Below are positions 5,299 through 38,022 of a stretch of DNA of 64,000 bases, piece after piece. How positions within the stretch are numbered: the first letter of the stretch is position 1; every line of letters starts with the position of its first letter. The stretch comes from Burkholderiales bacterium 39-55-53 (lineage in GTDB: Bacteria > Pseudomonadota > Gammaproteobacteria > Burkholderiales > Burkholderiaceae_C): assembly GCA_002282445.1 (NCBI GenBank), contig NCJK01000001.1, positions 930,001-994,000 on the forward strand, in the 5' to 3' direction. The notes under the pieces were generated by a model, which saw only the letters and a program-made list of their open reading frames with translations, did not search any database and was not told the origin of the DNA. The position numbers and the translations under genes are program-made.

Positions 5299-5382
5299 CC
5301 ACGACGATCAGCCAGCACCTGACATGGCTCCCATCGCTGCGCGACGAATGTCGCCAAGTCAGGCGCTGACTGCTCGCCGTGG
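5299..5382 (+). repeat. Palindromic element A (core in + orientation)
   Basis: Arms 5299-5323 and 5358-5382 are imperfect inverted repeats (21 of 25 positions). They enclose a 34-nt core that contains GGCTCCCATCGCTGCGC then GACGAATGTCGCC. The core is shared with the elements at 12091 and 12330 and, in its outline, with those at 37751 and 37958. The element lies downstream of lysA and its terminator, with the core on the lysA sense strand. The 5241-5522 interval is otherwise without a gene; I see nothing else supportable in it. Confidence 0.75.
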
Positions 5383-5522
5383 CTTCGGGCTGGTTCACAT
5401 GGCAAGTCAAAGTCTTTGACGTGGATGCTGTGCTCTACGAATGGCGCAAGCCAACTTCAGCGTGAGTCATTGCGCTTAAATGCAAACAAAGTCGGCGTGA
5501 AACGGCTCACAACCAACAGGCC

Positions 5523-5602
5523 GATGTGGCTACGGGTGTGCGGCCCCTGACGACTTCTGGTACTCCAGCATGAGGAAGGGGCCGTGCGCCCGTGACCACA
5601 TC
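5523..5602 (-). repeat. Palindromic element G (core in - orientation, divergent subtype)
   Basis: Arms 5523-5548 and 5577-5602 are inverted repeats (21 of 26 positions) around a 28-nt core. Read on the minus strand the core runs CCTCATGCTGGAGTACC then AGAAGTCG, which keeps the CCTC..GCTG..CAGAA..GTCG outline of the other elements. The outer arm reaches the last bases of the msrQ stop codon. There is no T-run, so it is not a typical terminator. Confidence 0.6.
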
Positions 5603-6242
5603 AGCGAGTGAAACCACCCGAGCTAAACAAATGACGCCACAAAGAAGAGTGAACAACCCGCCACGCGAGCAAACCAAACAACACCGAAGCGTAAACAAAC
5701 ACCTCAGCAAAGTTACTCTTCCCAGCCCGCATCCAAAAGAAGTGCAACACCGCCAGCACTGCCACCACATACACAAGGCGATGCAACCACTGCCAGCGCT
5801 TAGCACCTAACCACCGAATGGCGCGATTGAACGAAGTCAATGCCAAAGGCGTGAGCAACACAAACGCACCAAACCCCACCAAGATGAACGGGCGCTTGGC
5901 GATGTCGACAGCAATATCTACCCACTCAAACCCCATATCTAGCCAGCTGTAACAAAGCAAATGCAGCACCACATAGAAATAGGTAAACAAGCCAAACATA
6001 CGCCGGAACTTGGCCAGCTCAGGCAAGCCCGACATCACACGCAATGGCGTCACAACCAAGGTGATGCAAAGCAAGCGCAGTGTCCAATCGCCGGTGGCTC
6101 GAATCAAATACTCTGCAGGGTTGGCGCCTAAAGCGTCATTGGCTGCACCCCACACCAGCCATGCGAAGGGCATCAAACATAAAAGCCACAGCAAGGGCTT
6201 GGCGCTGCGGTGTTGCAGAGTTTGACGAAGCATCGCGCTCAC
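5601..6242 (-). CDS. msrQ: Haem-binding membrane subunit MsrQ of the periplasmic methionine sulfoxide reductase
   Basis: 213 residues with about six membrane helices and the ferric-reductase-like (YedZ) fold. Candidate haem ligands are His94 (VVLHLLCY), His154 (QWLHRLVY) and His167 (AVLHFFW). MsrQ passes electrons from the respiratory chain through the inner membrane to MsrP. The frame opens with GTG at 6242, four bases after the msrP stop; an ATG at 6233 is an alternative start. Neither has a clear ribosome site, so translation is probably coupled to msrP. The stop codon overlaps palindromic element G. Confidence 0.9.
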   Translation of the reverse strand: MSAMLRQTLQHRSAKPLLWLLCLMPFAWLVWGAANDALGANPAEYLIRATGDWTLRLLCITLVVTPLRVMSGLPELAKFRRMFGLFTYFYVVLHLLCYSWLDMGFEWVDIAVDIAKRPFILVGFGAFVLLTPLALTSFNRAIRWLGAKRWQWLHRLVYVVAVLAVLHFFWMRAGKSNFAEVFVYASVLFGLLAWRVVHSSLWRHLFSSGGFTR

Positions 6243-6246
6243 GTGA

Positions 6247-7266
6247 TCAATAGTTTTTGCTCAGGTCCATGCCTGCATAGAGCTGACCCACTTGGGCCTC
6301 GTAGCCGTTGAACATCAAGCTCTTGCGCTTTTTAGTAAACAAACCGTCTTCACCAATGCGACGCTCGGTGGCTTGACTCCAACGGGGATGGTGCACCGTA
6401 GGATTCACGTTGGAATAAAAGCCGTACTCTTGTGGCGCTGAGCGGCCCCATGAGCTCACGGGTTGTTTCTCGACAAAGCGGATCTTCACCAAGCTCTTGG
6501 CACTCTTGAAACCATATTTCCATGGCACGACCAAGCGCACAGGCGCTCCGTTTTGATTGGGCAGGACTTCGCCGTACATGCCAAAGCTCAATAGCGTGAG
6601 CGGGTGCATGGCCTCGTCCATGCGCAAACCTTCCACATACGGCCAATCGAGCACACGCGAGCGCACACCGGGCATGGTTTTGGGGTCGGCTTGGGTGATG
6701 AACTCCACATACTTGGCGCTGCCCAAGGGCTCTACGCGCTTGATCAATTCAGCCAGCGAGTAACCCACCCAAGGGATGACCATCGACCAGCCTTCGACGC
6801 AGCGCAAGCGGTAAATACGCTCTTCCATAGGGCTGAGTTTGAGCAATGCATCTAGGTCGAAGCGGCCGGGCTTTTTGACAAGGCCTTCGACCTCCACCGT
6901 CCACGGCTTGGTTTGTAGGGTGTGGGCGTATCGAACAGGGTCCGATTTGTCCGTGCCAAATTCGTAAAAGTTGTTGTAACTGCTGGCGTCGGCATAGGAG
7001 GTGATTTTTTCCATGGTGTTAGCACCACTCACGCGGCTGACCGCGCCTGTCAACGGGGCCAACTTACCTGGTCTTACGACCGGGTCCGTGGTTTGAGCAA
7101 AGGCTTCACGTGCGGCCCAAGAGGCCATTGACAAGCCTGCTGCACCTGCGGCCACTTGCTTGAGCCAATCGCGTCGTTGGGCATACACCGTTTGGGGTGT
7201 GATCTCGCTGCTCAAAGGGTGCACGAAGCCAGAGTCTGAGCTGTTCGAAAATTGGTTCAAGCGCAC
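6247..7266 (-). CDS. msrP: Molybdopterin protein-methionine-sulfoxide reductase catalytic subunit MsrP
   Basis: 339 residues. A Tat signal ([15 protein letters not shown], twin Arg at about 31-32) is followed by a hydrophobic stretch and a cleavage site near AFAQ. The mature protein has the sulfite-oxidase-like fold with the Mo-ligand cysteine in [15 protein letters not shown] (about Cys156). MsrP reduces oxidised methionines of periplasmic proteins. The start is GTG at 7266, with AAAGGAG five bases upstream. It is first in a two-gene operon with msrQ. No thiol-stress operator is evident upstream. Confidence 0.95.
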
Positions 7267-7356
7267 GTGAACTCCTTTGAATTAAAAAGTGTTCGTATTG
7301 TGATGCATGCTCAACTAAGTTTCAGGCTTGGCGCAAATGACCTTAGTGCTGAAAAC

Positions 7357-7381
7357 AAAAAAGCTGGCACAAGGCCAGCTT
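7357..7381 (-). terminator. Intrinsic terminator of the cytochrome c4 gene
   Basis: An 8-bp stem AAGCTGGC/GCCAGCTT (7361-7368 with 7374-7381) has a 5-nt loop. On the minus strand it is followed by a T-rich run (TTTTTTGTTTT), as expected for transcription ending from the gene at 7405. The rest of 7267-7404 shows no gene. Confidence 0.8.
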
Positions 7382-7404
7382 TTAGAAGAGCTTGAAGCTC
7401 TGAA

Positions 7405-8058
7405 TTAACGCAAACCAGCGATGTAGTCTGACACTGCTTTGATTTCGCGGTCATTCAGCTTAGCGGCCACGCCACTCATTTGGGCGCTGTTGCCTCGGCC
7501 TACGTTTTGGCCTGCACCTTTGTTTCCGTGTTCACGGAAGGCGTTCAATTGCGCCATGGTGTAGTCAGCGTGTTGACCGGCCAAACGTGGGTATTGCGCG
7601 GGAATACCTGCGCCCGTTGGGCTATGGCAACCTGCACAAGCTGCAATTTGGCGATCAGCCACACCGCCGCGGTAAATGCGCTCACCCAAAACCACCAAGT
7701 CTTTTTCTTTGGCGAAGTTTTTAGTTGCTTCCTTCGAGCCCAACCAAGCTGCCACGTTCTTCATGTCAGCATCAGACAAACCAGCAGCCATGCCGCTCAT
7801 GATGGCGTTGGCTCGCTTGCCAGATTTGTATTCTTGCAACTGCTTGACCAAATAGTCTGGGTGTTGCTGGGCCAACTTGGGGTAAGCCGGAGAACCAGAG
7901 TTGCCATCTGCACCGTGGCAAGACGCGCAAACTGCTGTGTAAGTGGCTTCACCTTTGGCCAAATCAGCTTTGGCAACAGGCGCCACGGGATCGGCTGCGT
8001 GGGACAAAGCAGGCGCCACGAAAGCGGCGGCAATCAACAGGGAGGCAATCAGCTTCAT
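7405..8058 (-). CDS. Dihaem cytochrome c4
   Basis: 217 residues: signal peptide (cleavage near SHA|ADP) and two class I c-type domains. The haem motifs are CASCH (about 44-48) and CAGCH (about 141-145). Candidate axial Met residues follow in IMSGM and AQMSGV. Cytochrome c4 is a periplasmic electron carrier, usually feeding terminal oxidases or denitrification enzymes. The ATG at 8058 gives a proper signal peptide; an upstream in-frame codon at 8085 adds only a hydrophilic stretch. Divergent from engB, with 63 bp between starts. Confidence 0.9.
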   Translation of the reverse strand: MKLIASLLIAAAFVAPALSHAADPVAPVAKADLAKGEATYTAVCASCHGADGNSGSPAYPKLAQQHPDYLVKQLQEYKSGKRANAIMSGMAAGLSDADMKNVAAWLGSKEATKNFAKEKDLVVLGERIYRGGVADRQIAACAGCHSPTGAGIPAQYPRLAGQHADYTMAQLNAFREHGNKGAGQNVGRGNSAQMSGVAAKLNDREIKAVSDYIAGLR

Positions 8059-8121
8059 AGGTATTCTTTGGTTAATGGGTCTCAAAGACTTCGAAAAACT
8101 GTGGTGATTCTACAATGCCGT

Positions 8122-8889
8122 ATGAATCAGCCTGACCCACACGACACCCAAAACCCTATTGACAACCCCGAGGTGCCCGAAATCGCGGTCTTAAACGCTG
8201 AATTTGAGGCCCAACGCGAGGCTGATCGGGCCGCTGCCAAAGCCGCTTTCGAGCTGCTGGACCCCAAAGACCAAGCTAAATACGCCATGGGCTGGCTGCA
8301 TACCGCGCGGTTCTTGACCACCGCCGCACAACTGCACCACCTGCCAACCTACGACCTGCCCGAAATCGCCTTTGTCGGCCGCTCGAACGCTGGTAAATCC
8401 ACCTGCATCAACGTACTGACTCAACAAAAGCGTTTGGCCTTCGCCTCCAAAACGCCAGGCCGCACCCAACACATCAATTTGTTTGCCATGGGCCGCCAAG
8501 GCAAGACCGACGCCGTTTTGGCCGACTTGCCCGGCTATGGCTACGCCGCTGTGCCCAAACAAGACAAGATTCGTTGGCAACAAGTGATGGCCAACTATTT
8601 GCTCACTCGCCCTAACCTACGTGCGGTCGTTCTCATGTGCGATCCACGACATGGCTTGACTGAACTAGACGAAATTTTGTTGGACGTGATCCGCCCACGC
8701 GTGGAGGAAGGTTTGAAGTTTTTGGTGTTGCTGACCAAGGCCGACAAACTGAACAAAACCGATGGCGCAAAGGCGCTGCAAATCACCAAGCTGCAAGCCG
8801 GCGGCGGCGAGGTACGCCTGTTTTCAGCGCTGAAAAAGCAAGGTGTGGATGAAGTGGCGGCCACTTTGTACAAGTGGATGCACCCCTAA
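8122..8889 (+). CDS. engB: Ribosome biogenesis GTP-binding protein EngB (YsxC/YihA)
   Basis: A TrmE-Era-EngA-EngB-Septin family GTPase needed for 50S subunit assembly. G1 is GRSNAGKS, G3 lies in DLPGYGYA and G4 is TKAD. As written it has 255 residues, including about 55 acidic/Ala-rich residues before MGWLHTARFLTTA, where most homologues align. The ATG at 8122 has no ribosome site and sits 5 bp after a TACAAT box at 8111-8116. The true start may therefore be the in-frame ATG at 8287 (200 residues, nearer the family norm). Convergent with the acyltransferase pair. Confidence 0.9.
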   Translation: MNQPDPHDTQNPIDNPEVPEIAVLNAEFEAQREADRAAAKAAFELLDPKDQAKYAMGWLHTARFLTTAAQLHHLPTYDLPEIAFVGRSNAGKSTCINVLTQQKRLAFASKTPGRTQHINLFAMGRQGKTDAVLADLPGYGYAAVPKQDKIRWQQVMANYLLTRPNLRAVVLMCDPRHGLTELDEILLDVIRPRVEEGLKFLVLLTKADKLNKTDGAKALQITKLQAGGGEVRLFSALKKQGVDEVAATLYKWMHP

Positions 8890-8902
8890 TTCAACTTATC
8901 CC

Positions 8903-9769
8903 TCAGTAAAGCTCAGGGGTTCCCGGCGGTCGCGTCTTAAAACGCTTGTGCACCCAAAAATATTGAGCAGGCATGGTGTTGATGAACACCTCTAAGCGTT
9001 GGTTCATGGTCGCCGTGTCGGCCTCGGCATCCTCTGTTGGAAAATCAATCCAAGCTGGATGCACCACCACCTCGTAGCCCGTCTCTGTCATGCGGGTGAT
9101 CACAGGCACCACACGTGCTCGGCCCAGCTTGGCAAAGCGCGAAAGCGATGGCACTGTGGCAGCTAGCTCGCCATAGAACGGTACGAAAATAGACTCACTC
9201 GGCCCAAAGTTCATATCGGGCAGCAAATAAAGCAATTCGTTTTGACGCAAGGCAGCGACGATGGGCTTCACGCCATCTTCTCGGCGAAACAAACGCACAT
9301 GGCCAAAACGCTGACGCCCCTTTGCGACCCATGCATCCACCACCGCATTGGACTGTGGCGTGAAGATGGTGGTGAAGTGCAAAGGTAGGCTCATGGTGAG
9401 CGCTGTCCATCCCACATCCAGGCCCATGAAATGGGGTGCAAACAGCACAGTGGGCGAGGCGTCCGACAGAGCCGCTACTTCACCTGACAGCTTCACACGC
9501 GCTTGAATGCGCGCAGCACTGCGATGCCACAGCCAGCTGCGGTCTAACCACGCTTGAGCGAAATACACAAAGGTTTGTCGAGCCAGCACATCGCGTTCGA
9601 CATCACTCAAATGCGGAAAGCACACGCGCAAATTGATCTGCACCACACGGCGACGTGAAGGAATCACCACCAACAACAAAGCACCCAGGCCTGCGCCCAA
9701 AGCGCGTAGCCACGGCAAAGGCAAATAGCCCAAGGCACGTAGCAGTAACAAACCCAACTTGCTGAACAT
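8903..9769 (-). CDS. Lipid A biosynthesis acyltransferase (LpxL/LpxM family)
   Basis: 288 residues. An N-terminal hydrophobic anchor is followed by the HX4D catalytic motif of the family, APHFMGLDVGW (His about 113, Asp about 118). These enzymes add secondary acyl chains to lipid A precursors at the inner face of the cytoplasmic membrane. The ATG at 9769 is chosen because GAGGG lies nine bases before it; a GTG directly precedes it. It follows a paralogue whose stop is at 9773, so the two are translated as a coupled pair. Which acyl chain or position each uses cannot be read from the sequence. Confidence 0.85.
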   Translation of the reverse strand: MFSKLGLLLLRALGYLPLPWLRALGAGLGALLLVVIPSRRRVVQINLRVCFPHLSDVERDVLARQTFVYFAQAWLDRSWLWHRSAARIQARVKLSGEVAALSDASPTVLFAPHFMGLDVGWTALTMSLPLHFTTIFTPQSNAVVDAWVAKGRQRFGHVRLFRREDGVKPIVAALRQNELLYLLPDMNFGPSESIFVPFYGELAATVPSLSRFAKLGRARVVPVITRMTETGYEVVVHPAWIDFPTEDAEADTATMNQRLEVFINTMPAQYFWVHKRFKTRPPGTPELY

Positions 9770-9772
9770 CAC

Positions 9773-10639
9773 TTAGCCCTCGGCACGCGGCTGTTTGCCA
9801 CGCGCGTAGCCCCACATGTATTGGCTCGGCGCATCCAACACCATGCGTTCCACACCACGATTCACCGCCGCAGCCGCGGCTTCTGGCGACACTGTGGCGT
9901 CTTTCATTTCGGGGGCGTCAAACGGACGCATGTGCATGCAAAAGCCTTGGCCTATCGGCAAGCGCTCGCACCACGTCATGATGACCTGGGCGCCGGTTTG
10001 CTGCGCCAACTTGGCGAGCAAGGTCATGGTGTACACATCGCGACCAAAAAATGGCGCCCACACACCTTGCCCCAAAGGTGGCACTTGGTCGGGCAAGATG
10101 GCCGTGTAGCCGCCGTTGCGCAACGCGCGAATCAGCGTGCGCACGCCTGCCAACGAAGTGGGGGCTGAATCTAAATAAGGGCGCGTGCGTGCATTGGCCA
10201 CCAAGGGCTCTAACCATGCTTGGCGCGCAGGACGGAACAACGCAATCATGGGGCCATGAGCTGGGCCAAATTTTTCGGCAATGGCTTGCGCGCCAATCTC
10301 CCATGCACCAATGTGTGGCGACATGATGATGACACCCTTGCCAGCTTGCATGGCAGCTTCAAAATGTTCAGCGCCATCCCACTTCATCAAGCCATCAAGC
10401 TTTGTTTCATGCGGGCGCATCCACACCCAAGGCAGCTCGGCCACCATTGAACCAATGGCCGCCACCGCTGGGCGGGCATCACGCCATGCTACGCCTGCGG
10501 CTTGTACATTGGCTTGGAAATTTCGCCGATAACTGGGCGACAACCACCACACCATCCACCCTAGAACAGCGCCTAACCGCTGCATCAAAGGCAGGGGCAT
10601 GCGTGCTAAGAAATGAAAAATGCGGGTAGTGAGAGACAT
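9773..10639 (-). CDS. Lipid A biosynthesis acyltransferase (LpxL/LpxM family), first of a tandem pair
   Basis: 288 residues, a paralogue of the next gene. It has a membrane anchor at about 15-35 and the catalytic HX4E variant MSPHIGAWEIG (His about 109, Glu about 114). Ordinary LpxL enzymes have HX4D or HX4E, so both copies look active. The start ATG at 10639 is only about 8 bp from the -35 box of the oppositely oriented metK promoter, so the two transcription units share a very short control region. The order metK-divergent-acyltransferase pair is common in Burkholderiales. Confidence 0.85.
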   Translation of the reverse strand: MSLTTRIFHFLARMPLPLMQRLGAVLGWMVWWLSPSYRRNFQANVQAAGVAWRDARPAVAAIGSMVAELPWVWMRPHETKLDGLMKWDGAEHFEAAMQAGKGVIIMSPHIGAWEIGAQAIAEKFGPAHGPMIALFRPARQAWLEPLVANARTRPYLDSAPTSLAGVRTLIRALRNGGYTAILPDQVPPLGQGVWAPFFGRDVYTMTLLAKLAQQTGAQVIMTWCERLPIGQGFCMHMRPFDAPEMKDATVSPEAAAAAVNRGVERMVLDAPSQYMWGYARGKQPRAEG

Positions 10640-10646
10640 GAACTTT

Positions 10647-10674
10647 TTGATGACTTTGATAAATCCACTAGAAT
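10647..10674 (+). promoter_or_regulatory. Sigma70-type promoter of metK
   Basis: TTGATG (10647-10652), a 16-bp spacer and TAGAAT (10669-10674). Transcription should start near 10681, leaving a leader of about 150 nt before metK. Confidence 0.6.
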
Positions 10675-10680
10675 ATAGAT

Positions 10681-10834
10681 TGTCGCTGAGTTAAAGAACT
10701 ACTTGCAGGGCGACAACACACTTCGGTGTTCGGGCTAAGAGCAATCTGGGCCACTCTGCTAAAGCGTTCGCTAGGCTCCAAGTTTTCAGGGTCGGCAACG
10801 CCGAACAACCCATTAAAAACAAGGACCTTTTTTT
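10681..10834 (+). promoter_or_regulatory. Structured 5' leader of metK, class unknown
   Basis: About 154 non-coding nucleotides with several local hairpins. There is a GTCGC/GCGAC stem (about 10682-10714), an ACAC-TTCG-GTGT tetraloop hairpin at about 10720, an AGAG/CTCT stem and an AGCG/CGCT hairpin. A CGGC-AAC-GCCG hairpin flanked by GGGT/ACCC lies just before the ribosome site AAGGA (10821-10825). Read as a longer pairing, TTCGGTGTT near 10724 can also pair with AACGCCGAA near 10798. I do not recognise a SAM-I, SAM-II or SAH aptamer. Control of metK by its product would fit, but this is inference. Confidence 0.45.
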
Positions 10835-12019
10835 ATGTCTAGCAATTACCTCTTCACTTCTGAATCCGTTTCAGAAGGCCACCCAGACAAAGTGGCAGAC
10901 CAAATCTCTGACGCGATTTTGGACGCCATCTTCGAGCAAGACCCGCTCTCACGCGTGGCTGCCGAAACCCTGACCAACACCGGTTTGGTCGTATTGGCTG
11001 GCGAGATCACCACCAACGCGCACGTGGATTACATCCAAGTTGCACGCGACACCATCAAGCGCATCGGCTACGACAACACCGACTACGGCATTGACTACAA
11101 AGGTTGCGCTGTGATGGTTTGTTACGACAAGCAATCCAACGACATCGCCCAAGGCGTGGACCACGCGTCTGACGACCACCTCAACATCGGCGCGGGTGAC
11201 CAAGGCCTGATGTTTGGCTACGCTTGCAGCGAAACACCAGAGTTGATGCCTGCTCCTATCTACTACGCACACCGTTTGGTCGAGCGCCAAGCCCAGTTGC
11301 GCAAAGACGGCCGCTTGCCTTTCTTGCGCCCTGACGCCAAGAGCCAAGTGACCATGCGCTACGTGGACGGCAAGCCTCACAGCATTGACACCGTGGTGTT
11401 GTCCACCCAACACAGCCCTGACCAAAGCGAGTCAGCCACCAAGATGAAAGCCAGCTTCAACGAAGCCATCATCGAAGAGCTGATCAAACCCGTGTTGCCC
11501 AAAGAGTGGTTACAAGACACAAAGTTTTTGATCAACCCCACAGGCCGTTTCGTCATCGGCGGCCCACAAGGCGATTGCGGTTTGACTGGCCGCAAGATCA
11601 TTGTGGATACCTACGGCGGCGCATGCCCTCACGGCGGTGGCGCGTTCTCAGGCAAAGACCCATCGAAGGTGGACCGCTCTGCCGCATACGCTGCACGTTA
11701 CGTGGCCAAAAACATCGTGGCAGCTGGCTTGGCGACACAGTGCCAAGTGCAAGTGGCATACGCCATCGGCGTGGCACGCCCCATGAACATCACCGTGAAC
11801 ACCGCAGGTACTGGCGTGATCTCTGACGACAAGTTGTCAGCACTGGTGGCTGAGCACTTTGACCTGCGCCCCAAAGGCATCATTCAAATGCTTGACTTAC
11901 TGCGTCCAATCTACGCCAAGACAGCGGCTTACGGCCACTTTGGTCGTGAAGAGCCAGAATTTACATGGGAGCGTACTGACAAGGCTGCTGCATTGAAGGC
12001 TGCAGCCGGCGTGAAGTAA
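10835..12019 (+). CDS. metK: S-adenosylmethionine synthase
   Basis: 394 residues, standard MetK length. It makes SAM from methionine and ATP in the cytoplasm. Signature motifs are [14 protein letters not shown] at the N-terminus (ATP and Mg binding), [12 protein letters not shown] (about 118-129) and the P-loop-like [23 protein letters not shown]. The ATG at 10835 has AAGGA nine bases upstream. It is preceded by a long structured leader and followed by an intrinsic terminator. Functionally it pairs with the ahcY-tlyA-metF operon at 32.7-35.8 kb. Confidence 0.97.
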
Positions 12020-12043
12020 ACGCTGCTTTGCTTGTTTAGCTTG

Positions 12044-12078
12044 AAGGGTCTCTTGTGTTTACAAGGGACCCTTTTTCT
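12044..12078 (+). terminator. Intrinsic terminator of metK
   Basis: A 13-bp stem (12044-12056 with 12061-12073, one G-U pair) with a GTTT loop, followed by TTTCTTTG, 24 bp after the stop. Confidence 0.9.
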
Positions 12079-12090
12079 TTGTCCACAGGG

Positions 12091-12168
12091 ATGCGAGTTG
12101 GGGTAGGCAGACGCGGCTTACATCGCTTCGCGACGAATGGCGCCGCATCTGCCTACCCCAACTCGCAT
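12091..12168 (+). repeat. Palindromic element B (core in + orientation)
   Basis: A perfect 21-bp inverted repeat (12091-12111 with 12148-12168) encloses a 36-nt core containing GGCTTACATCGCTTCGC then GACGAATGGCGCC. The core is nearly identical to that of element C in the same gap, but the arms are different. The core lies on the sense strand of metK. Confidence 0.85.
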
Positions 12169-12184
12169 GCTGTTATTCGGAAAA

Positions 12185-12222
12185 GTTCAGGCGATCTGCG
12201 CTTGCAAAGCCAATGCCTGAAC
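12185..12222. repeat. Short inverted repeat
   Basis: GTTCAGGC at 12185-12192 pairs with GCCTGAAC at 12215-12222 around a 22-nt spacer. A second small hairpin (ACGGGC/GCCCGT) is at 12301-12318. The remainder of the 12020-12446 gap holds the metK terminator and elements B and C and no gene. Confidence 0.4.
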
Positions 12223-12329
12223 GTGGCTACAACGACATATCCACAAACGTACGCATTGTTTCTTTGCTTGCAGCTACGTTCGCCAAAACTAATTCACATG
12301 ACGGGCGTCATAGCCCGTTAACAAAAAGA

Positions 12330-12406
12330 AGCTTGGGTGGCGTACCCCAATAAGGCGCCATTCGTCGCGCAGCGATGTAAGCCGTTTGGGGTACGCCACC
12401 CAAGCT
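12330..12406 (-). repeat. Palindromic element C (core in - orientation)
   Basis: A perfect 21-bp inverted repeat (12330-12350 with 12386-12406) encloses a 35-nt core. On the minus strand the core reads CGGCTTACATCGCTGCGC then GACGAATGGCGCC, 30 nt shared with element B with one difference. The core is therefore on the sense strand of the ABC exporter gene, which ends 40 bp away. Confidence 0.85.
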
Positions 12407-30424: not shown

Positions 30425-30433
30425 TTCAGCTCC

Positions 30434-30862: not shown

Positions 30863-30999
30863 AGTTAAATCCTAAAAGGAGAGTTGGTTTGTAGGGTCCT
30901 TTTCCACGGTCGGCGTTCTTCTGTTGAGAACCTCTTAGGTGGGATGTGCCTTTTTCAAAGCCTCTGCCGCGGGACCACTCAAACGCTGCAGAGCCAAAG

Positions 31000-31029
31000 A
31001 TTATAAGCAAAATCAAACGCTTAGCGCAA
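31000..31029 (-). promoter_or_regulatory. Promoter of rplM-rpsI
   Basis: On the minus strand TTGCGC (31029-31024), an 18-bp spacer and a perfect TATAAT (31005-31000). The start should be near 30994, giving a leader of about 130 nt. The divergent rlmJ gene starts 44 bp from the -35 box. Confidence 0.6.
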
Positions 31030-31072
31030 ATTTGGCCCAAAGAAGGTGAATTGGCGGGTTACCATCCTGTTT

Positions 31073-31951
31073 ATGTTCAGTTATCGCCACGCTTTTCACG
31101 CCGGAAACCACGCCGACGTCCTCAAACACCTCACTTTGATTGCCACTTTGAAGCATTTGATGCAAAAAGACGCAGGCATTCAGTTTGTGGATACGCATGC
31201 GGGCGCTGGCCTGTACCGCTTGGACGGCGACTATGCTGAAAAAAGTGGCGAAGCCGCCGAGGGCATTTTGAAGGTGATCAACCTCAAAGGCCCTGCCGCC
31301 CTGACCGACTACCTAGACATGGTGGCCAGCTTCAATGCCAAAGGCAGCCACAAGATTTACCCAGGCTCGCCGTTCATCATCCACAAGCTGCTGCGCCACG
31401 AAGCGCGCGACCGCTTGAAGCTGTTTGAACTGCACCCCACCGACCACAAATCACTCACAGGCAATGTGCAGCAGCTGGAAGCTGGCCGCACGGTCAGCGT
31501 GGCGCGTGCGGATGGCTTTGAGTCACTCAAAGCATTGCTGCCACCACCTTTGTCGAGCACCGGCTCACGCCGCACCTGCGTGTTGATTGACCCCAGCTAC
31601 GAAATCAAGAATGACTATTACCGTGTGATTGATTGCATTCAAGACAGTTTGAAGCGATTTGCGACAGGCACGTACATCGTCTGGTACCCCATCGTGCCCC
31701 GCCCTGAAGCGCACGATTTGCCACGCAAACTCAAAGGTCTGTGCAGCCAAGTCAAAAAGCCATGGTTGCACGCCACGCTGGCGATTGGCCGCGAAACCAG
31801 CAGCAAAGACGCGGGCCTGAGCGCCAGCGGCATGTTCATCGTCAACCCACCTTTTGCGCTGAAGCCTTTGCTGAACGAAGCGCTGCCCGTGGTGGAAGAA
31901 GCTTTGGCCCGTGGGCCAGGTCGCGGCTGGACGGTGGAATCTGGCGGTTAA
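31073..31951 (+). CDS. rlmJ: 23S rRNA (adenine-2030-N6)-methyltransferase RlmJ
   Basis: 292 residues. The family opening MFSYRHAFHAGNHADVLKH is intact, VDTHAGAGLY lies in the SAM site and the catalytic DPSYE (DPPY-type, about 174-178) follows. It uses SAM to methylate A2030 in 23S rRNA. I use the ATG at 31073; an in-frame GTG at 31046 lies in the rplM promoter region and does not fit the family N-terminus. Confidence 0.93.
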   Translation: MFSYRHAFHAGNHADVLKHLTLIATLKHLMQKDAGIQFVDTHAGAGLYRLDGDYAEKSGEAAEGILKVINLKGPAALTDYLDMVASFNAKGSHKIYPGSPFIIHKLLRHEARDRLKLFELHPTDHKSLTGNVQQLEAGRTVSVARADGFESLKALLPPPLSSTGSRRTCVLIDPSYEIKNDYYRVIDCIQDSLKRFATGTYIVWYPIVPRPEAHDLPRKLKGLCSQVKKPWLHATLAIGRETSSKDAGLSASGMFIVNPPFALKPLLNEALPVVEEALARGPGRGWTVESGG

Positions 31952-31973
31952 GCGGTTTGTCTTGCGCACATGT

Positions 31974-32000
31974 AAAAGGCCTCGCAATGCGAGGCCTTTT
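31974..32000. terminator. Bidirectional terminator between rlmJ and ompW
   Basis: A perfect palindrome with A-tracts on the left and T-tracts on the right, AAAAGGCCTCGCA at 31974 and TGCGAGGCCTTTT ending at 32000. It can end both convergent transcripts. Confidence 0.9.
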
Positions 32001-32018
32001 GCTGGGGGAAGCTAATGC

Positions 32019-32618
32019 TTAGAAGCGGTAGCCAACGCCTACACCAACCAAGACTGGGTCGAGCTTTAGAGTACCAGCGTCCGTACCGCCGGCGTACACG
32101 TGGGTTTTCAGTTGAACCTTTTTGATATCAAAGTTCAACGAAACTTGTTTTGTCAAAGGCACGTCAACGCCTACCTGAAGTGCAAGACCAGAGCTATGCC
32201 CCTCAAGCGTCACATTATTAGTTCCTCCTAAAGCGCTAATTTGCTCTTTACAAATTTTTGTAAGATTCAAACCTGCACCGACATAAGGCTTAAATCCGTT
32301 GAAATTTGTGAAGTGATATTGACCCAGAAGCGTTGGAGGCAAATGCTTAAATGTGCCCAAATCTGAACCGTTTGAATACACATGCTGCTTTTGAGGAATC
32401 GTCAAGATCAACTCTGCAGCGATGTTTTTGTTAAAGAAGTAGCTGATATCTACCTCCGGAATGGTTTTGTTATCGACCGTCAAACCCAAGCCCGTTGTGT
32501 CTTTATTTGCCATATCTAAATGCACAGCACGCGCACGAACCAACCAAGGACTCTCTTGAGCAGCGACAGAACCAACAGCCAACATGCCAATAGCAGCGGC
32601 GATAAGAATTTTTTTCAT
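32019..32618 (-). CDS. ompW: OmpW family outer-membrane beta-barrel protein
   Basis: 199 residues. A signal peptide (MKKILIAAAIGMLAVGSVAAQ) is followed by the eight-stranded OmpW barrel, with SPWLVRARAVHL at the start of the mature protein, NKTIPEVDISYFFNKNIAAELIL, FKPYVGAGLN, and the C-terminal aromatic signature GVGYRF. The ATG at 32618 has AAGGAAG upstream; longer frames only add an implausible leader. OmpW forms small hydrophobic-solute channels. Base composition is noticeably more AT-rich than the neighbours, which is common for this gene. Two FNR-type sites lie upstream. Confidence 0.92.
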   Translation of the reverse strand: MKKILIAAAIGMLAVGSVAAQESPWLVRARAVHLDMANKDTTGLGLTVDNKTIPEVDISYFFNKNIAAELILTIPQKQHVYSNGSDLGTFKHLPPTLLGQYHFTNFNGFKPYVGAGLNLTKICKEQISALGGTNNVTLEGHSSGLALQVGVDVPLTKQVSLNFDIKKVQLKTHVYAGGTDAGTLKLDPVLVGVGVGYRF

Positions 32619-32686
32619 TTTTTGCTTCCTTGTACTCGGGTCTATTCCCGTGCTGTTGATTTCACAGCGATGAAGGAAGCAAGACA

Positions 32687-32700
32687 TTGACCCCGATCAA
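32687..32700 (-). promoter_or_regulatory. FNR/ANR box, proximal
   Basis: On the minus strand TTGATCGGGGTCAA, one mismatch from TTGAT-N4-ATCAA. A -10-like TGAAAT lies at the distance expected for a class II FNR promoter with the box centred at -41.5, giving a start about 34 nt before the ompW ATG. Confidence 0.75.
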
Positions 32701-32718
32701 GCCCTTAGACAAAGGTAT

Positions 32719-32732
32719 TTGATGAAGATCAA
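32719..32732. promoter_or_regulatory. FNR/ANR box, distal
   Basis: TTGATGAAGATCAA is a perfect match to the palindromic FNR consensus. Its centre is 32 bp, about three helical turns, from the proximal box. It lies 12 bp from the metF stop codon. Confidence 0.8.
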
Positions 32733-32743
32733 GCTACCGGCAG

Positions 32744-33583
32744 TTAGGCGGTGAATCCCAAATTTTTACAAATAGCCAACGTGGTGGCGCTTTGGTTCAT
32801 GCTGTAGAAATGCAGTCCAGGCGCACCGCCTGCACGCAACTGGTCACACAAGTCTGTGACCACTTCCAAGCCAAAAGCTTTGATGGACGCAATATCGTCG
32901 CCGTAACCTTGCAAACGCAAACGGATCCAACGGGGAATTTCTGCACCACATGCATCGGAGAAGCGCAACAACTGCGACGAGCTGGTGATGGGCATGATGC
33001 CGGGGATGATTGGGATTTCCACGCCCAACTTATCAGCATCTTCCACAAAACGGAAATACGCATCGCTGTTGTAAAAGTATTGGGTAATCGCTGAATCAGC
33101 ACCCGCCTTCACCTTGGTGGCAAAGGCTTGCAAATCTGCCTCAGCCGATTTGGCTTGAGGATGAATCTCTGGGTAGGCGGCCACTTCAATGCCAAAGTCA
33201 TCACCTGTCTCTGCACGAATGAAGGCCACCAGATCGCTGGCGTAATGAAACTCGCCGCCGGCGCCGTAGCCGCTGGGCAAATCGCCGCGCAAAGCCACCA
33301 AACGTTTGACGCCCATGGCTTTGAACTCGGCCAGTTGCTGGCGCACGCTGTCGCGTGTGGCGCCAATGCAAGAGAAGTGAGATGCGGCAGCCATGCCCTC
33401 GCCCAAGATCTCTTTCAGCGTCGAAATCGTGCCTGCTTGGGTAGAGCCTCCCGCACCGTAGGTGACCGAACAAAACTGCGGCTTGAGCGGGTACAACGCC
33501 TGACGCACCGCGCGCAACTTCTCTGCACCCTCTGGCGTCTTGGGTGGGAAAAACTCAATGCTCAAGCTGTTGTTCGTGTTCAT
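32744..33583 (-). CDS. metF: 5,10-methylenetetrahydrofolate reductase
   Basis: 279 residues, a TIM-barrel flavoprotein. The opening LSIEFFPPKTPEGAEKL carries the catalytic Glu, followed by VTYGAGGST, VALRGDLP and IIPGIMPI. It makes 5-methyl-THF, the methyl donor for homocysteine remethylation. The ATG at 33583 fits the family N-terminus; the longer frame has no support. It is the last gene of ahcY-tlyA-metF, which places SAH removal and homocysteine remethylation under one riboswitch. Confidence 0.95.
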   Translation of the reverse strand: MNTNNSLSIEFFPPKTPEGAEKLRAVRQALYPLKPQFCSVTYGAGGSTQAGTISTLKEILGEGMAAASHFSCIGATRDSVRQQLAEFKAMGVKRLVALRGDLPSGYGAGGEFHYASDLVAFIRAETGDDFGIEVAAYPEIHPQAKSAEADLQAFATKVKAGADSAITQYFYNSDAYFRFVEDADKLGVEIPIIPGIMPITSSSQLLRFSDACGAEIPRWIRLRLQGYGDDIASIKAFGLEVVTDLCDQLRAGGAPGLHFYSMNQSATTLAICKNLGFTA

Positions 33584-33605
33584 ATCCGTCTCACTTGTTG
33601 GCGCG

Positions 33606-34361
33606 TCATGCTCGACGCGCACCAATCCAAAATTCTTTATTACCATCGCCACCGGCAATGGCGCTGGGCCAATAGCCCAGCACATCTAAATTCAAAGTAG
33701 CACAGGCCTCGCGCAATCGCGCTTCAACTTGCACATAGCTGGCTTCGTCCTTGACCAAACCGCCTTTGCCAATGTCGCTGGGCTGCAGTTCAAACTGCGG
33801 TTTGACCAACATCAGCAGCGCCCCGCCCTTTTTCAACAAAGGCAGCAACGCGGGTAATACAAGGGTGAGCGAGATGAAAGACAAATCACCCACCACCAAA
33901 TCAAATCCTAGGGCCACATTGGGCACGCGCGCATCGTTAGGCTCTAGCTCGCGAGCGTTGATGCGCTCGACACACACAACACGCGCATCGTCGCGCAAAC
34001 GTGGATGCAACTGACCGTGCCCCACATCCAAGCCCACTACTTGCGCAGCGCCTTGCTGCAGCAAGCAATCGGTGAATCCGCCAGTGCTTTGCCCCACATC
34101 GAGGCAACGCAAACCTTGGGCCAATAGGCCACTGCTTTGCAGCGCACCTTCCAGCTTCAAACCACCGCGAGACACGTAACGTGCCTCAGCGTTGTCTAGC
34201 AAACGCACCTCACAAGGCAGTGGTAACTCGTCACCATTTTTGGAAACGCGTTGCCACGGCTTAGTGCCTAACCGCCACTCCACACCCGAGGTGATCAGCC
34301 GCTGCGCTTGAGAGCGCGAAGCGGCTAACCCACGTTCAAGAAGTAGCTGGTCAGCACGCAT
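33606..34361 (-). CDS. tlyA: TlyA family rRNA 2'-O-methyltransferase/haemolysin-like protein
   Basis: 251 residues. An N-terminal S4 RNA-binding domain (MRADQLLLERGLAASRSQAQRLI) is joined to an FtsJ-type SAM methyltransferase domain (LDVGQSTGGFTDCLLQQGA, then VGDLSFISL). In Mycobacterium TlyA methylates 16S and 23S rRNA; the target here is not known. It lies between ahcY and metF with short gaps (18 and 22 bp), so it is part of the SAH-controlled operon. Confidence 0.88.
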   Translation of the reverse strand: MRADQLLLERGLAASRSQAQRLITSGVEWRLGTKPWQRVSKNGDELPLPCEVRLLDNAEARYVSRGGLKLEGALQSSGLLAQGLRCLDVGQSTGGFTDCLLQQGAAQVVGLDVGHGQLHPRLRDDARVVCVERINARELEPNDARVPNVALGFDLVVGDLSFISLTLVLPALLPLLKKGGALLMLVKPQFELQPSDIGKGGLVKDEASYVQVEARLREACATLNLDVLGYWPSAIAGGDGNKEFWIGARRA

Positions 34362-34379
34362 CCGTGAAGTGCGAAGTGC

Positions 34380-35813
34380 TTAGTAGCGGTACGTGTCGGC
34401 TTTGTATGGGCCGTTCTTAGACACACCGATGTAAGCGGCTTGCTCGTCGCTCAACTCGGTCAGCTGAGCGCCAACTTTCTTGAGGTGCAAACGTGCCACT
34501 TTTTCATCGAGGTGCTTAGGCAACACATAAACCTTGCCTGCTTCGTATTGGTCTTGCTTGGTGAACAACTCGATCTGAGCGATCGTTTGGTTCGCAAAGC
34601 TAGAGCTCATCACAAAGCTGGGGTGGCCAGTGGCACAACCCAAGTTCACCAAGCGGCCTTTGGCCAACAAAGTAATCTTCTTGCCATCAGGGAAGATGAC
34701 GTGGTCGACTTGAGGCTTGATCTCGTCCCACTTGCACTTTTCCAACGAAGCCACATCGATTTCGTTGTCGAAGTGACCGATGTTGCAAACGATGGCTTCG
34801 TCTTTCATGGCGGCCATGTGCTCGTAGCGGATCACGTTCTTGTTGCCGGTGGCAGACACGAAGATGTCGCACTTGTCGGCGGCGTATTCCATGGTGACCA
34901 CTTTGTAGCCTTCCATGGCAGCTTGCAAGGCGTTGATTGGGTCGATCTCGGTCACCCACACTTGAGCGCTCAAAGCGCGCAAGGCTTGTGCAGAACCTTT
35001 GCCCACGTCGCCGTAGCCGGCCACGCAAGCCACTTTGCCTGCGATCATCACGTCGGTGGCGCGCTTGATAGAGTCCACCAAAGATTCGCGGCAGCCGTAC
35101 AAGTTGTCAAACTTGCTCTTGGTCACAGAGTCGTTCACGTTGATGGCGCGGAACATCAAGCTGCCTTTGGCGGCCATTTCGTTCAAGCGCAACACGCCTG
35201 TGGTGGTCTCTTCGGTCACGCCGATGATGTGCGCACCTTTGCGGCTGTACCAAGTAGGGTCCACAGCCAATTTGGCTTTGATGGCGTTGAACAAACAAGT
35301 TTCTTCTTCGCTGGTGGGGTTGGCGATCAAAGAAGCGTCGGTTTCAGCGCGCTTGCCCAAGTGCATCAACAAGGTGGCATCACCGCCGTCGTCCAAGATC
35401 ATGTTGGGGCCTTCGCCTTCGGTGCCTTTGGCGCCGAATTCAAAAATGCGGTGGGTGTAGTCCCAGTACTCGGCCAGGGTTTCGCCTTTGGTGGCGAACA
35501 CAGGAATGCCAGCTTCTGCGATGGCAGCAGCGGCGTGGTCTTGGGTAGAGAAGATGTTGCAAGAAGCCCAACGCACGTCAGCGCCCAAAGACTTCAAGGT
35601 TTCGATCAACACAGCCGTTTGAATGGTCATGTGCAAAGAACCAGTCACGCGAGCGCCTTTCAAAGGCTGCGCTTTGGCGAATTCTTCGCGGATGGCCATC
35701 AAACCGGGCATTTCGGTTTCGGCGACTTTGATTTCTTTGCGGCCCCAAGCGGCCAAGGACATGTCGGCCACGATGTAATCAGCGGCGGCGTTGGTATTAA
35801 GAACAGCGTTCAT
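34380..35813 (-). CDS. ahcY: Adenosylhomocysteinase
   Basis: 477 residues. It hydrolyses SAH to adenosine and homocysteine using bound NAD. The NAD-binding motif is [27 protein letters not shown] and [13 protein letters not shown] line the substrate site, and the conserved C-terminus is [12 protein letters not shown]. The ATG at 35813 has GGAG nine bases upstream and gives [15 protein letters not shown]; a start at 35843 is unsupported. It is the first gene of the operon with tlyA and metF and is led by an SAH riboswitch. Confidence 0.97.
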
Positions 35814-35914
35814 TTGTGAGACTCCAAAAGTTGGCAAAGCCACTAGCGGCGCGCGGTCAGCGTCATCTGGGAGTCCGAAGTATTCTTCGAGGAGCTCACC
35901 TCACGTCGACTAGT

Positions 35915-35993
35915 GGGTGAGCGCGGTTGGCAGTCCGAGCCTCACCTGTGAATTTGACCCTTGCGAGCCGACAGGCTGCAGCGCTCCTCGGAT
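35915..35993 (-). ncRNA. S-adenosylhomocysteine (SAH) riboswitch
   Basis: On the minus strand the conserved SAH aptamer blocks appear in order. CCGAGGAGCGCTGC is first, then a variable hairpin region, GAGGCTCGGACT, and CCAACCGCGCTCACCC. GAGCGC can pair with GCGCTC (P1), and CCGAG with CTCGG (the pseudoknot). A TAAAAT -10 box at 36001-36006 places the start at the first aptamer bases. About 100 nt downstream, GGTGAGC followed by GCTCCTCG (35898-35886) can pair with the aptamer's 3' and 5' strands, a likely expression platform. SAH should switch ahcY-tlyA-metF on. Confidence 0.9.
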
Positions 35994-36101
35994 AGGCAAG
36001 ATTTTAAACGAACTTCTAAAACCCCTGCTTGACCACGGCCCCAGCGCTATGATTCCCGCCTTGATTTGCCATTTTTAGGCGTCCCCTTTTATTTAGACCC
36101 C

Positions 36102-37733
36102 ATGAGCTCCTTTTTGAACGAAGTGCGCCGTCGCCGCACCTTTGCCATCATTTCTCACCCCGACGCGGGTAAAACCACGCTGACCGAAAAGCTGTTGCTG
36201 TTCTCGGGCGCGATTCAAATCGCGGGCGCCGTCAAAGGCCGCAAAGCCAGTCGCCACGCCACGTCTGACTGGATGGAAATCGAAAAGCAGCGCGGCATCT
36301 CGGTGGCCTCATCGGTGATGCAGATGCTCTATCGCGAGCACGTCATCAACTTGCTCGATACCCCCGGCCACAAAGACTTCTCGGAAGACACCTACCGCGT
36401 GCTCACCGCCGTGGACTCAGCCTTGATGGTGATTGACGCGGCCAATGGTGTGGAAGCGCAAACTCGCCGCTTGATTGAGGTGTGCCGTCAGCGCGACACG
36501 CCCATCATCACGTTTGTGAACAAGATGGACCGCGAAGTGCGCGACCCGCTCGACATCCTTGATGAAGTTGAACGCGAACTCGGCATGCCTTGCGTGCCCA
36601 TGACATGGCCTGTGGGCCAAGGCAAGTTGTTCGGCGGCATCATCAACTTGCGCACCCAAGCCATGACGGTGTTTGACTCTGGCTCTGAGCGTCTGCCACA
36701 AGACTTTGAAACGCACCCGCTGACCGAGCAAGCCCAACTGGCCGAACGCTTTGGCTTGGAATGGGCCACCGCCATGGAAAGCATGGAGCTGGCCACGGGC
36801 GCATCGCCCAAGTTCGACAAAGAAGCCTTCTTGGCCGGCAAGCAAACGCCCGTGTTCTTTGGCTCGGGCGTGAACAACTTTGGTGTGATGGAAGTGCTTG
36901 ACGCCTTGGTCGACCTCGCACCATCACCTCGGCCGCGCTTGAGCCATCTTGTTGTGAACAAACAAGCTGTCGAGAAAACGATCCAGCCCGAAGACGAAGG
37001 ATTTGCCGGCGTGGTGTTCAAGGTGCAAGCCAACATGGACGCCAACCACCGCGACCGCATTGCGTTTGTGCGCGTGGCCTCAGGCAAGTTCACGCCAGGT
37101 ATGAAGCTCAAGGTGCAACGCACCGCCAAAGAACTGCGCCCCACCAGCGTGGTGACCTTCATGTCGCAACGCCGCGAAGCTGTGGAAGAAGCGTATGCCG
37201 GCGACATCATCGGTTTCACTACACACGGCGGCGTGCAGTTGGGCGACACCATCACCGACGGACCCGCGTTGCAATTCACCGGTCTGCCGTTTTTCGCGCC
37301 TGAGTTGTTCATGACGGTGATTTTGAAAAACCCATTGCGCACCAAGCAACTCCAGCAAGGCTTGGACCAGTTGGGGGAAGAAGGCGCGATTCAGGTATTC
37401 AAACCCGAAGCCGGTGGCGCAATGTTGCTAGGCGCTGTGGGCCAGTTGCAGTTTGAAGTGGTGCAGCACCGCTTGAAGGCCGAATACGACTGTGATGTGA
37501 AGTTAGAGAGCTGCCAGTACACCGGCGCGCGTTGGATCACGGCTGACACGCCTGCTGAACTGCGTGAGTTCACTTATGCGTATCCGCAGCGTATGGCTTT
37601 GGATGCGGCCAACACGTTGGCGTATTTGTGCACGTCACCTTATGACGTGCGGTTGGCACAGGAACGTTTCCCTAAGATTCATTTCCATCCTTTGCGTGAG
37701 CATGCTGGGTTGGCTTTGTCTACTGCGGGTTGA
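36102..37733 (+). CDS. prfC: Peptide chain release factor 3
   Basis: 543 residues. A translational GTPase that recycles RF1/RF2. G1 is SHPDAGKTTLTEK (about 18-30), G2 lies in EKQRGISVASSVM, G3 is DTPGHKDF and G4 is NKMD. A C-terminal RF3 domain follows. The ATG at 36102 gives the family start MSSFLNEVRRRRTFAIIS; an in-frame ATG at 36066 adds 12 residues that look unlike the family. No strong ribosome site is visible. Divergent from the ahcY operon. Confidence 0.95.
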   Translation: MSSFLNEVRRRRTFAIISHPDAGKTTLTEKLLLFSGAIQIAGAVKGRKASRHATSDWMEIEKQRGISVASSVMQMLYREHVINLLDTPGHKDFSEDTYRVLTAVDSALMVIDAANGVEAQTRRLIEVCRQRDTPIITFVNKMDREVRDPLDILDEVERELGMPCVPMTWPVGQGKLFGGIINLRTQAMTVFDSGSERLPQDFETHPLTEQAQLAERFGLEWATAMESMELATGASPKFDKEAFLAGKQTPVFFGSGVNNFGVMEVLDALVDLAPSPRPRLSHLVVNKQAVEKTIQPEDEGFAGVVFKVQANMDANHRDRIAFVRVASGKFTPGMKLKVQRTAKELRPTSVVTFMSQRREAVEEAYAGDIIGFTTHGGVQLGDTITDGPALQFTGLPFFAPELFMTVILKNPLRTKQLQQGLDQLGEEGAIQVFKPEAGGAMLLGAVGQLQFEVVQHRLKAEYDCDVKLESCQYTGARWITADTPAELREFTYAYPQRMALDAANTLAYLCTSPYDVRLAQERFPKIHFHPLREHAGLALSTAG

Positions 37734-37750
37734 TTCGTTGCTTTTGTAGT

Positions 37751-37835
37751 GAAGAGAGGCTCAGTGGCATTGCCCTAGGCTCCTCTTCGCTGCGCTCAGA
37801 ATGTCGCTACGGGCAACACCACTGAGCCTCTCTTC
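37751..37835 (+). repeat. Palindromic element D (core in + orientation)
   Basis: A 17-bp perfect stem plus 6 bp beyond a 2x2 mismatch (37751-37775 with 37811-37835) encloses a 35-nt core with GGCTCCTCTTCGCTGCGC then TCAGAATGTCGCTAC. It starts 17 bp after the prfC stop, with the core on the prfC sense strand. No T-run follows. The rest of the 37734-38070 gap, apart from element E, shows no gene. Confidence 0.85.
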
Positions 37836-37957
37836 GCGTTGCACGCATCAGATTCGGGTACGGGTACAAACGTCCGCCCTCACACGAAAACTCTGGCATA
37901 CGGGACATCACTTCTGCGCCAACTTGACTGAGCGAAGTCATCCGCTCACAAACAAGT

Positions 37958-38022
37958 GCTGCGGGATAAGCCGTAGCGGCATTCTGAGCGCAGCGAAGAG
38001 GAGCCTAGGCTTATCCCGCAGC
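37958..38022 (-). repeat. Palindromic element E (core in - orientation)
   Basis: A perfect 15-bp stem (37958-37972 with 38008-38022) encloses a 35-nt core that is the reverse complement of element D's core at 34 of 35 positions, yet the arms are unrelated. The core lies on the uvrA sense strand, 48 bp after the uvrA stop. Confidence 0.85.

What the first reader, a model, noticed from the sequence alone, without database searches (positions are those of the whole stretch)
5299..38022. A family of palindromes with one conserved core and a different arm pair in every copy
Seven elements (5299, 5523, 12091, 12330, 37751, 37958 and 41394) share a 28-38 nt core. The common outline is GGCT(C/T)..CGCTKCGC..GAATG(T/G)CGC. 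In each the core is enclosed by 14-26 bp arms that pair with each other, yet the arms share no sequence between copies: D and E have cores 34/35 identical and unrelated arms. Conserved loop plus self-complementary variable arms is the reverse of most REP elements, whose stems are conserved. It suggests selection on an RNA or DNA hairpin with a fixed loop, or insertion that generates new inverted repeats from the target.
Basis: seen in the sequence. Interest (0 to 1): 0.8.

Follow-up and report, generated by a model that had tools for sequence, protein, structure and literature searches.

The report
Conserved-tip hairpins with free-sequence stems
These are repeated hairpins in Comamonadaceae bacteria in which a small tip is conserved while the long stem may have almost any sequence as long as it still pairs on one particular strand, which makes them an unusual relative of the known bacterial REP repeats.

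Summary
Six of the seven window elements share one core (fam1); the 5523 element has a second core (fam2) in the same architecture. The core is the tip of a stem of about 15-30 bp; 228 of 231 copies examined have at least 14 bp. Arms differ between most copies but are inherited: in orthologues, arms are 92% identical, cores 97%, flanks 63% (94 of 112 pairs). Pairing is kept by compensatory change (66 copies: 90.2% of cells paired, shuffled 57.5%). Arm mismatches are strand-specific: 360 would be G.U on one strand, 52 on the other. So selection sees one folded strand. Neighbouring fam2 copies form inverted pairs (50 of 52); most copies are intergenic, but fam1 lies in frame in uvrA and valS. 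The fam1 tip motif also occurs as a naked TGTC-tagged REP without arms (0 of 90 copies with arms). Best reading: a REP-class repeat whose tip stands on a shape-selected, sequence-free stem, acting as folded RNA more likely than ssDNA. The factor is unknown. Target-copying insertion is not supported.

The parts
5298..5383 (-). element A, fam1; arms 5298-5328 and 5353-5383, core between; favoured folding strand is minus
   Evidence: similar arms at L002 and L007
5520..5605 (+). element B, fam2 (different core); core 5549-5576; favoured strand plus; partner of A
   Evidence: model R1 73.1 bits, E 2.6e-16 at 5525-5600
12091..12168 (-). element D, fam1; favoured strand minus
   Evidence: orthologues in G080 and G158
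12330..12406 (+). element E, fam1; favoured strand plus; partner of D
   Evidence: orthologue in G080 with nearly the same arms
37751..37835 (-). element F, fam1; favoured strand minus
37958..38022 (+). element G, fam1; favoured strand plus; partner of F
41380..41473 (-). element H, fam1, inside the uvrA coding sequence; favoured strand minus, which is the uvrA mRNA strand
38071..43881 (-). host gene of element H: 1936-aa UvrA-like protein; linker stretch 56 aa where 17 relatives have 32-33 aa

Best explanation
A REP-class interspersed repeat with two layers. The tip is a conserved module. In fam2 it is a C-G pair, then an internal loop with invariant G,A on both sides (best read as two sheared G.A pairs plus a U.U/U-A tract), then a four-pair mini-stem. 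In fam1 it is a GC-GNA-GC mini-hairpin related to the widespread TGTC/CGTC-tagged REP. The tip sits on a roughly 25-bp helix whose sequence is free but whose pairing is kept by selection on one strand only. SHOWN: architecture, strand specificity, compensatory evolution, conservation at fixed loci beyond that of the flanks, inverted pairing. INFERRED: the folded strand is RNA (readthrough or 3'-UTR transcripts, and the uvrA and valS mRNAs) and is bound by a protein that reads the tip and needs a long helix below it. Stem sequence drifts pair by pair through G.U intermediates until paralogues look unrelated; occasional whole-arm replacement adds to this. Copies spread at some time, probably as pairs; many now stand at fixed loci shared between species.
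For: Arm mismatches: 360 are G.U on the favoured strand, 52 on the other (231 elements; per element 167 against 9, 55 equal; with repeated contexts removed, 301 against 51). RNA folding energy is lower on the favoured strand in 47 of 48 fam1 and 215 of 232 fam2 copies. Orthologues (94 of 112 pairs used): one-sided changes between W-C and favoured-strand G.U 142, the opposite kind 22, other mismatches 61; two-sided W-C to W-C 64, of which 44 are transitions on both sides. Alignment of 66 diverse fam2 copies: covariation 0.792 against 0.188 shuffled and at most 0.184 when slid; C27-G50 also covaries (63 C-G, 3 U-A). At the 12 kb locus both hairpins are almost unchanged between two species whose spacers do not align. 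Both in-frame copies (uvrA, valS) have the favoured strand as mRNA. In the home genus 18 of 19 unpaired representatives have the favoured strand in sense to an adjacent or host gene.
Against: In named relatives, unpaired intergenic copies show no orientation bias to genes (13 against 14; 3 inside predicted genes and 5 at contig edges not counted; gene calls are heuristic), so transcription of the favoured strand is not assured. No transcript data were available. No factor was identified and Rfam has no match at gathering scores. A single-strand DNA substrate would give the same asymmetry. Not every orthologue is kept: one (e102_G158) has lost its stem. The 18 orthologous pairs left out have arms under 65% identical; some are indel or register effects, but some are wholly replaced, which simple drift explains poorly.
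Confidence: 0.55

Rival explanations
1. Single-strand DNA element: a REPIN/BIME-like repeat processed as folded ssDNA by an HUH (Y1) enzyme, which would also read one strand only and ignore gene orientation.
For: Inverted pairs; few divergent contexts (4 of 46 classified pairs, 5 of 65 classified intergenic singles); patchy distribution; copies inside uvrA and valS, as reported for REPs in repair and tRNA synthetase genes (PMC3733652). TnpAREP acts on folded single-stranded REP and not on its inverse (PMC8266576, passages). Some fam2 copies sit inside GGGGTCAG palindromes like the repeats near the Y1 gene.
Against: The Y1 gene is present in genomes with and without the elements (mostly one copy), absent in one that has them (G107), and none of 17 Y1 loci carries either core within about 1.5 kb. 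No relative of the G000 Y1 protein in loci L001-L209 other than its own. Orthologous hairpins stay paired at fixed loci by compensatory change, which stationary mobile DNA would not need.
Confidence: 0.3
2. Mutational upkeep: quasi-palindrome template switching copies one arm onto the other, so arms stay complementary without selection.
For: Whole-arm replacement at orthologous loci with the same core (e3/e80, e15/e44, uvrA e48); replaced arms mostly not found at other loci.
Against: Predicts no difference between G.U and A.C mismatches; observed 360 against 52. Does not explain arms being far more conserved between species than flanks.
Confidence: 0.08
3. The core inserts into the tips of hairpins that already exist, or copies its target, so each copy shows the arms of its target.
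For: GGGGTCAG palindromes occur with and without the core (L122:602 against L122:4048). Di Nocera 2013 describes REPs inside longer palindromes.
Against: Long palindromes without the core are rare: in 867 kb of loci there were 143, of which 126 match the fam2 core (inflated, because the loci were chosen for that core); by inspection the other 17 are 7 variant cores, 1 fam1-like, 8 GGGGTCAG and 1 unrelated. The uvrA arms do not match 17 unoccupied linkers (weak). Arms are inherited and sometimes shared between loci.
Confidence: 0.05

Closest known systems
CGTC-tagged REP repeats (Di Nocera et al. 2013, PMC3733652; include RPE-4, RPE-6 and dRS3)
   Same: fam1 tip: four-base tag then ATTCTGAGC-GNA-GCGAAG in one subtype; inverted dimers; mostly intergenic; in-frame copies in repair and tRNA synthetase genes; no dedicated transposase known
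   Different: tag is CGAC/CGCC/CGGC/AGAC, never CGTC (0 of 48); the tail differs; the tip sits on a roughly 25-bp free-sequence stem, whereas 0 of 90 copies of the naked motif on viral contigs have such arms
REPs nested in longer palindromes (A. variabilis GTAG-15, H. neapolitanus CGTC-1, T. roseum GTAG-23; same paper)
   Same: a REP inside a longer palindrome; for A. variabilis and H. neapolitanus no empty palindromes were found
   Different: there the surrounding palindrome fits a consensus, and in the first two it holds REP dimers; here each single tip has largely its own arms
REPIN/BIME pairs with TnpAREP (RAYT)
   Same: two hairpins in inverted orientation with a spacer; recognition of one folded strand is plausible
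   Different: no GTAG at the foot of the stem as a family feature, no cognate RAYT found, core starts mostly 106-297 bp apart, stem not conserved
Rickettsia palindromic elements
   Same: in-frame palindromic insertions into housekeeping genes (as described in PMC3733652)
   Different: RPE sequences were not compared here

Membership tests
CGTC-tagged REP | terminal CGTC (often TGTC or CCTC) tag | tested here: not met
   fam1 tags: CGAC 28, CGCC 18, CGGC 1, AGAC 1 of 48
CGTC-tagged REP | short stem of 8-9 bp with A-T pairs first, loop of 4-5, short tail | tested here: inconclusive
   the ATTC half is present, but the 3' partner AGAAT of the naked motif is replaced by AGAGGAGC or GTAAGCC (read)
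CGTC-tagged REP | dimers predominantly HH (tags outside) | tested here: not met
   in '+-' pairs (50 of 52 fam2 neighbours; the fam1 pairs) the ATT-proximal end of the favoured strand faces inward
GTAG REP / REPIN with RAYT | GTAG tag at the end of the hairpin | tested here: not met
   not conserved in the fam2 alignment; GTAG stands directly before the tip in 10 of 48 fam1 copies only
GTAG REP / REPIN with RAYT | cognate RAYT gene flanked by the repeat | tested here: not met
   0 of 17 Y1 loci carry the cores within about 1.5 kb; Y1 presence does not track the elements over 15 genomes
Repeat nested in a palindrome | REP-like core inside a longer inverted repeat | tested here: met
   228 of 231 copies with stems of at least 14 bp
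Intrinsic terminator | U-run directly 3' of the hairpin | tested here: not met
   T4 or longer within 15 nt after the stem on the favoured strand: 0 of 280; on the other strand 15 of 280
Rfam RNA family | match at gathering score | tested here: not met
   95 kb searched, only SAH and ZMP-ZTP riboswitches found
Rickettsia palindromic element | sequence similarity to an RPE consensus | not tested
   no RPE sequences were compared

The most novel reading that the evidence does not exclude
A class of repeated structural element in which selection fixes only a tip module with facing G/A columns and the shape of a long helix on one strand, so that nearly every locus carries a private stem. It would be an RNA (or ssDNA) signal bound by an unknown host factor, derived in part from a widespread REP core, and conserved better than the intergenic DNA around it.
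Probability: 0.35. Interest if true: 0.75.

Novelty: new variant of a known kind. Interest (0 to 1): 0.62.

Why it matters
REP repeats are usually defined by a conserved stem, so consensus searches can miss families whose stem is free. Here more than two hundred paralogous and orthologous copies make a natural compensatory-mutation experiment, which says that a bacterial REP-like repeat is seen by selection as one folded strand. That bears on the old question of whether such repeats are selfish DNA or working parts. The two in-frame copies carry the same fold through the coding sequences of uvrA and valS.

Tried and rejected
Rejected or dead ends. Intrinsic terminator: no U-run after the stem on the favoured strand. 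Known Rfam RNA: none at gathering scores. Cognate RAYT: none found. Strict 3'-UTR rule: true for 18 of 19 unpaired representatives in the home genus, not in named relatives. Target-derived arms: no support in uvrA. Empty site at 5.3 kb: G080 lacks element A, but the neighbouring terminator is missing too, so it is not a clean empty site. fam2 on viral contigs: 0 stretches. Literature: HSERSEE and six core strings gave 0 papers; searches listed REP papers among others but, in the listings seen, none that describes conserved-tip, variable-stem repeats in Comamonadaceae. PMC3733652: parts 1-4 of 8 read plus a term search; PMC12306157: abstract and outline only; PMC8266576: 12 passages only. The first gene-context calling was too noisy and was replaced. 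K-turn and SECIS readings of the fam2 internal loop are from memory and did not fit well; not claimed. Rows dropped: one search left out 18 of 112 orthologous pairs (arms under 65% identical; some, such as e7/e55 and those with e88, partly through indels or register). The alignment used 66 of the 69 non-redundant copies kept from 160 candidates that were screened against GGGGTCAG flanks; I left out L099, L141 and one L171 copy by hand. The first two are among the shortest-stemmed copies, so the pairing figure leans slightly high. In one search the measure 'pairs with a change on both sides' does not discriminate (25 observed, 23.5 shuffled), because the arms vary so much. In one search, 24 of the 31 uvrA loci given were parsed. 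In one search, the 90 copies come from the 80 loci listed out of 90 stretches found.
Full report
CHECK. The seven hairpins are in the window. Six share one core (fam1). The element at 5523 is different: its core, TCCTCATGCTGGAGTACCAGAAGTCGTC in core orientation, defines a second family, fam2. In the home genome (G000, 2.56 Mb) the fam1 pattern has 16 places at up to 3 mismatches, two of which look like chance; two more loci have fam1-like tips with another mini-hairpin (L002, L007). fam2 has 11 pattern places, and the later covariance model finds 16. Nearly all cores cap a long stem. In a set of 231 copies (56 from G000 and a sister species G080, 175 from named relatives) the median stem is 26 bp and 228 have at least 14 bp. 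fam2 stems score 21.5 on average, arms swapped between copies 4.5. Long palindromes without such a core are rare: in 867 kb of related loci 143 were found, 126 with the fam2 core (a share inflated because the loci were chosen for it); by inspection the other 17 are 7 variant cores, 1 fam1-like core, 8 GGGGTCAG palindromes and 1 unrelated. In the window itself, all six that the scan listed are fam1.

STRAND. Totals: 360 against 52, with 147 other mismatches; elements 167 against 9 with 55 equal; after removing repeated contexts 301 against 51. RNA folding is more stable on that strand in 262 of 280 copies (47 of 48 fam1, 215 of 232 fam2, 2 ties). I call it the favoured strand. On it fam2 reads GACGAUUU-CUGG-UACN-CCAG-(C/U)AUGAGGA and fam1 GCGNCAUUC-...GCGNAGC...-GAGGAGC or -GUAAGCC. 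Pairs hold both orientations at one locus, so a replication or transcription strand bias in mutation does not easily explain the asymmetry.

EVOLUTION. In five species of the home genus, 108 elements fall into 33 orthologous groups and 9 singletons. Over 94 of 112 orthologous pairs (18 left out because arms were under 65% identical) arms are 91.9% identical, cores 96.7%, and 25-nt flanks on each side 63.1% without gaps, which understates flank identity where there are indels. One-sided changes go between Watson-Crick and favoured-strand G.U 142 times, the opposite kind 22 times, other mismatches 61 times; two-sided Watson-Crick replacements number 64, of which 44 are the double transitions that a G.U intermediate allows. 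At the 12 kb locus the two hairpins hardly differ between G000 and G080 while the spacer does not align. At other loci the core stays and the arms are largely changed: C1:120237 (with an intermediate in a named MAG, L125), uvrA, C9:99443 and C1:594685. Replaced arms were not found at other loci apart from short 15-19 nt matches in flank or core-proximal sequence, except that the G080 arm at the 594 kb locus resembles the one at the 123 kb locus. Maintenance is not universal: the G158 orthologue of element F has lost its stem (e102).

COVARIATION. An ungapped alignment of 66 diverse fam2 copies gives 90.2% standard pairs (shuffled 57.5%; slid by 1-3 columns at most 47.0%), 596 two-sided cells (shuffled 190.5) and covariation 0.792 (shuffled 0.188, slid at most 0.184). 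The count of pairs with two-sided changes does not discriminate (25 observed, 23.5 shuffled), because the arms vary so much. Related rows inflate the shuffle comparison, but the slid controls keep relatedness. RNAalifold recovers the same stem and adds a C27-G50 pair that covaries (63 C-G, 3 U-A). Invariant columns include G28, A29, G48 and A49, which face each other, plus U31, U32 and parts of the mini-stem. That they form sheared G.A pairs is my inference. Copies with other mini-stems keep the GAUUU and AUGA sides in most cases seen. The model finds the fam2 window element with 73.1 bits (E 2.6e-16) and scores each of the six fam1 elements higher on its favoured strand than on the other.

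DISTRIBUTION. fam2 occurs in 9 of 150 sampled genomes of the family at up to 3 mismatches (8 of 141 genera), in 12 of 61 genus genomes by another exact pattern and, by the model with strict filters, in 4 of 300 genomes of the order, all in the same family. fam1 beyond the home genus is four lone one-mismatch hits against three hits of the reversed-pattern control, so fam1 looks confined to the genus in this sample of 150. The host's name was not established. Adjacent fam2 elements within 600 bp are '+-' in 50 of 52 cases, and extra partners found by structure lie on the same side. Divergent gene contexts are few (4 of 46 classified pairs, 5 of 65 classified intergenic singles).

GENES. Element H lies in uvrA. 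Among the 24 uvrA loci that could be parsed (of 31 given), the linker stretch is 56 aa with the fam1 core in G000, G182, G158, G160 and G080, 56 aa with a degenerate core in G152, 51 aa with a GGGGTCAG palindrome in G159, and 32-33 aa in 17 others. The three solved UvrA chains whose alignments were shown lack the extra stretch. A second copy lies in frame in valS in G000 and G160, read in another frame (the gene name is recalled from the sequence). In both genes the favoured strand is the mRNA. In the home genus 18 of 19 unpaired representatives are in sense to an adjacent or host gene; in named relatives there is no such bias (13 against 14). The three window pairs A/B, D/E and F/G each lie between convergent ORFs.

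WHAT IT IS. The fam1 tip matches a widespread naked motif, TGTCATTCTGAGCGNAGCGAAGAATC, which fits the tag-stem-loop-tail description of CGTC/TGTC REPs (Di Nocera 2013). In 90 copies on viral contigs (80 loci read of 90 stretches) the tag is TGTC in 79, and none has flanking arms scoring 10 or more. So a REP-like tip has gained, in this lineage, a long stem of free sequence. fam2 shares the architecture; I suspect but did not prove common descent with fam1. Membership in the CGTC family is not claimed, because the tag and dimer orientation fail. The Y1 transposase found in 14 of 15 genomes does not track the elements, and none of 17 Y1 loci carries the cores nearby.

HOW IT WORKS. The evidence demands that one folded strand matters. 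I favour RNA, because wobble pairs are tolerated about seven times more on that strand, orthologous copies are maintained at fixed loci, and both in-frame copies are in sense. ssDNA handled by an HUH enzyme remains a serious rival, because gene orientation is not consistent in the named relatives. Template switching alone cannot make the strand asymmetry, and target copying finds no support.

Noticed in passing
window 35912-35995: SAH riboswitch on the minus strand, 52.2 bits; also found in the G080 orthologue L086.
   Followed up: no
window 38071-43881: uvrA-like ORF of 1936 aa, about twice the length of the solved UvrA chains, with UvrA similarity in both halves; long ORFs of similar size occur at the matches in many genus members.
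   Followed up: partly
L215 (G159) and L225, L227, L229, L232, L234: At the uvrA linker that holds element H, G159 carries a GGGGTCAG palindrome in frame, and L225, L227, L229 and L232 (less clearly L234) carry a single stretch resembling half of it at normal linker length.
   Followed up: partly
L122:4048-4149 against L122:602; L201:4659; L101: GGGGTCAGATCAACATTAATTT palindromes exist with and without the fam2 core at their centre; three closely similar core-bearing copies within 8 kb of L101 suggest recent movement.
   Followed up: partly
G000:C1:922298-922636 (about 7.4 kb before the window): Y1 transposase gene with GGGGTCAG-type repeats beside it; Y1 genes in 14 of 15 genomes tested, and 16 of 17 Y1 loci hold at least one GGGGTCAG.
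   Followed up: partly
L020 and L266: In-frame fam1 element in valS (gene name recalled from the sequence) of G000 and G160.
   Followed up: yes
L166: fam2 element in a record labelled Singulisphaera, possibly a contaminated MAG.
   Followed up: no
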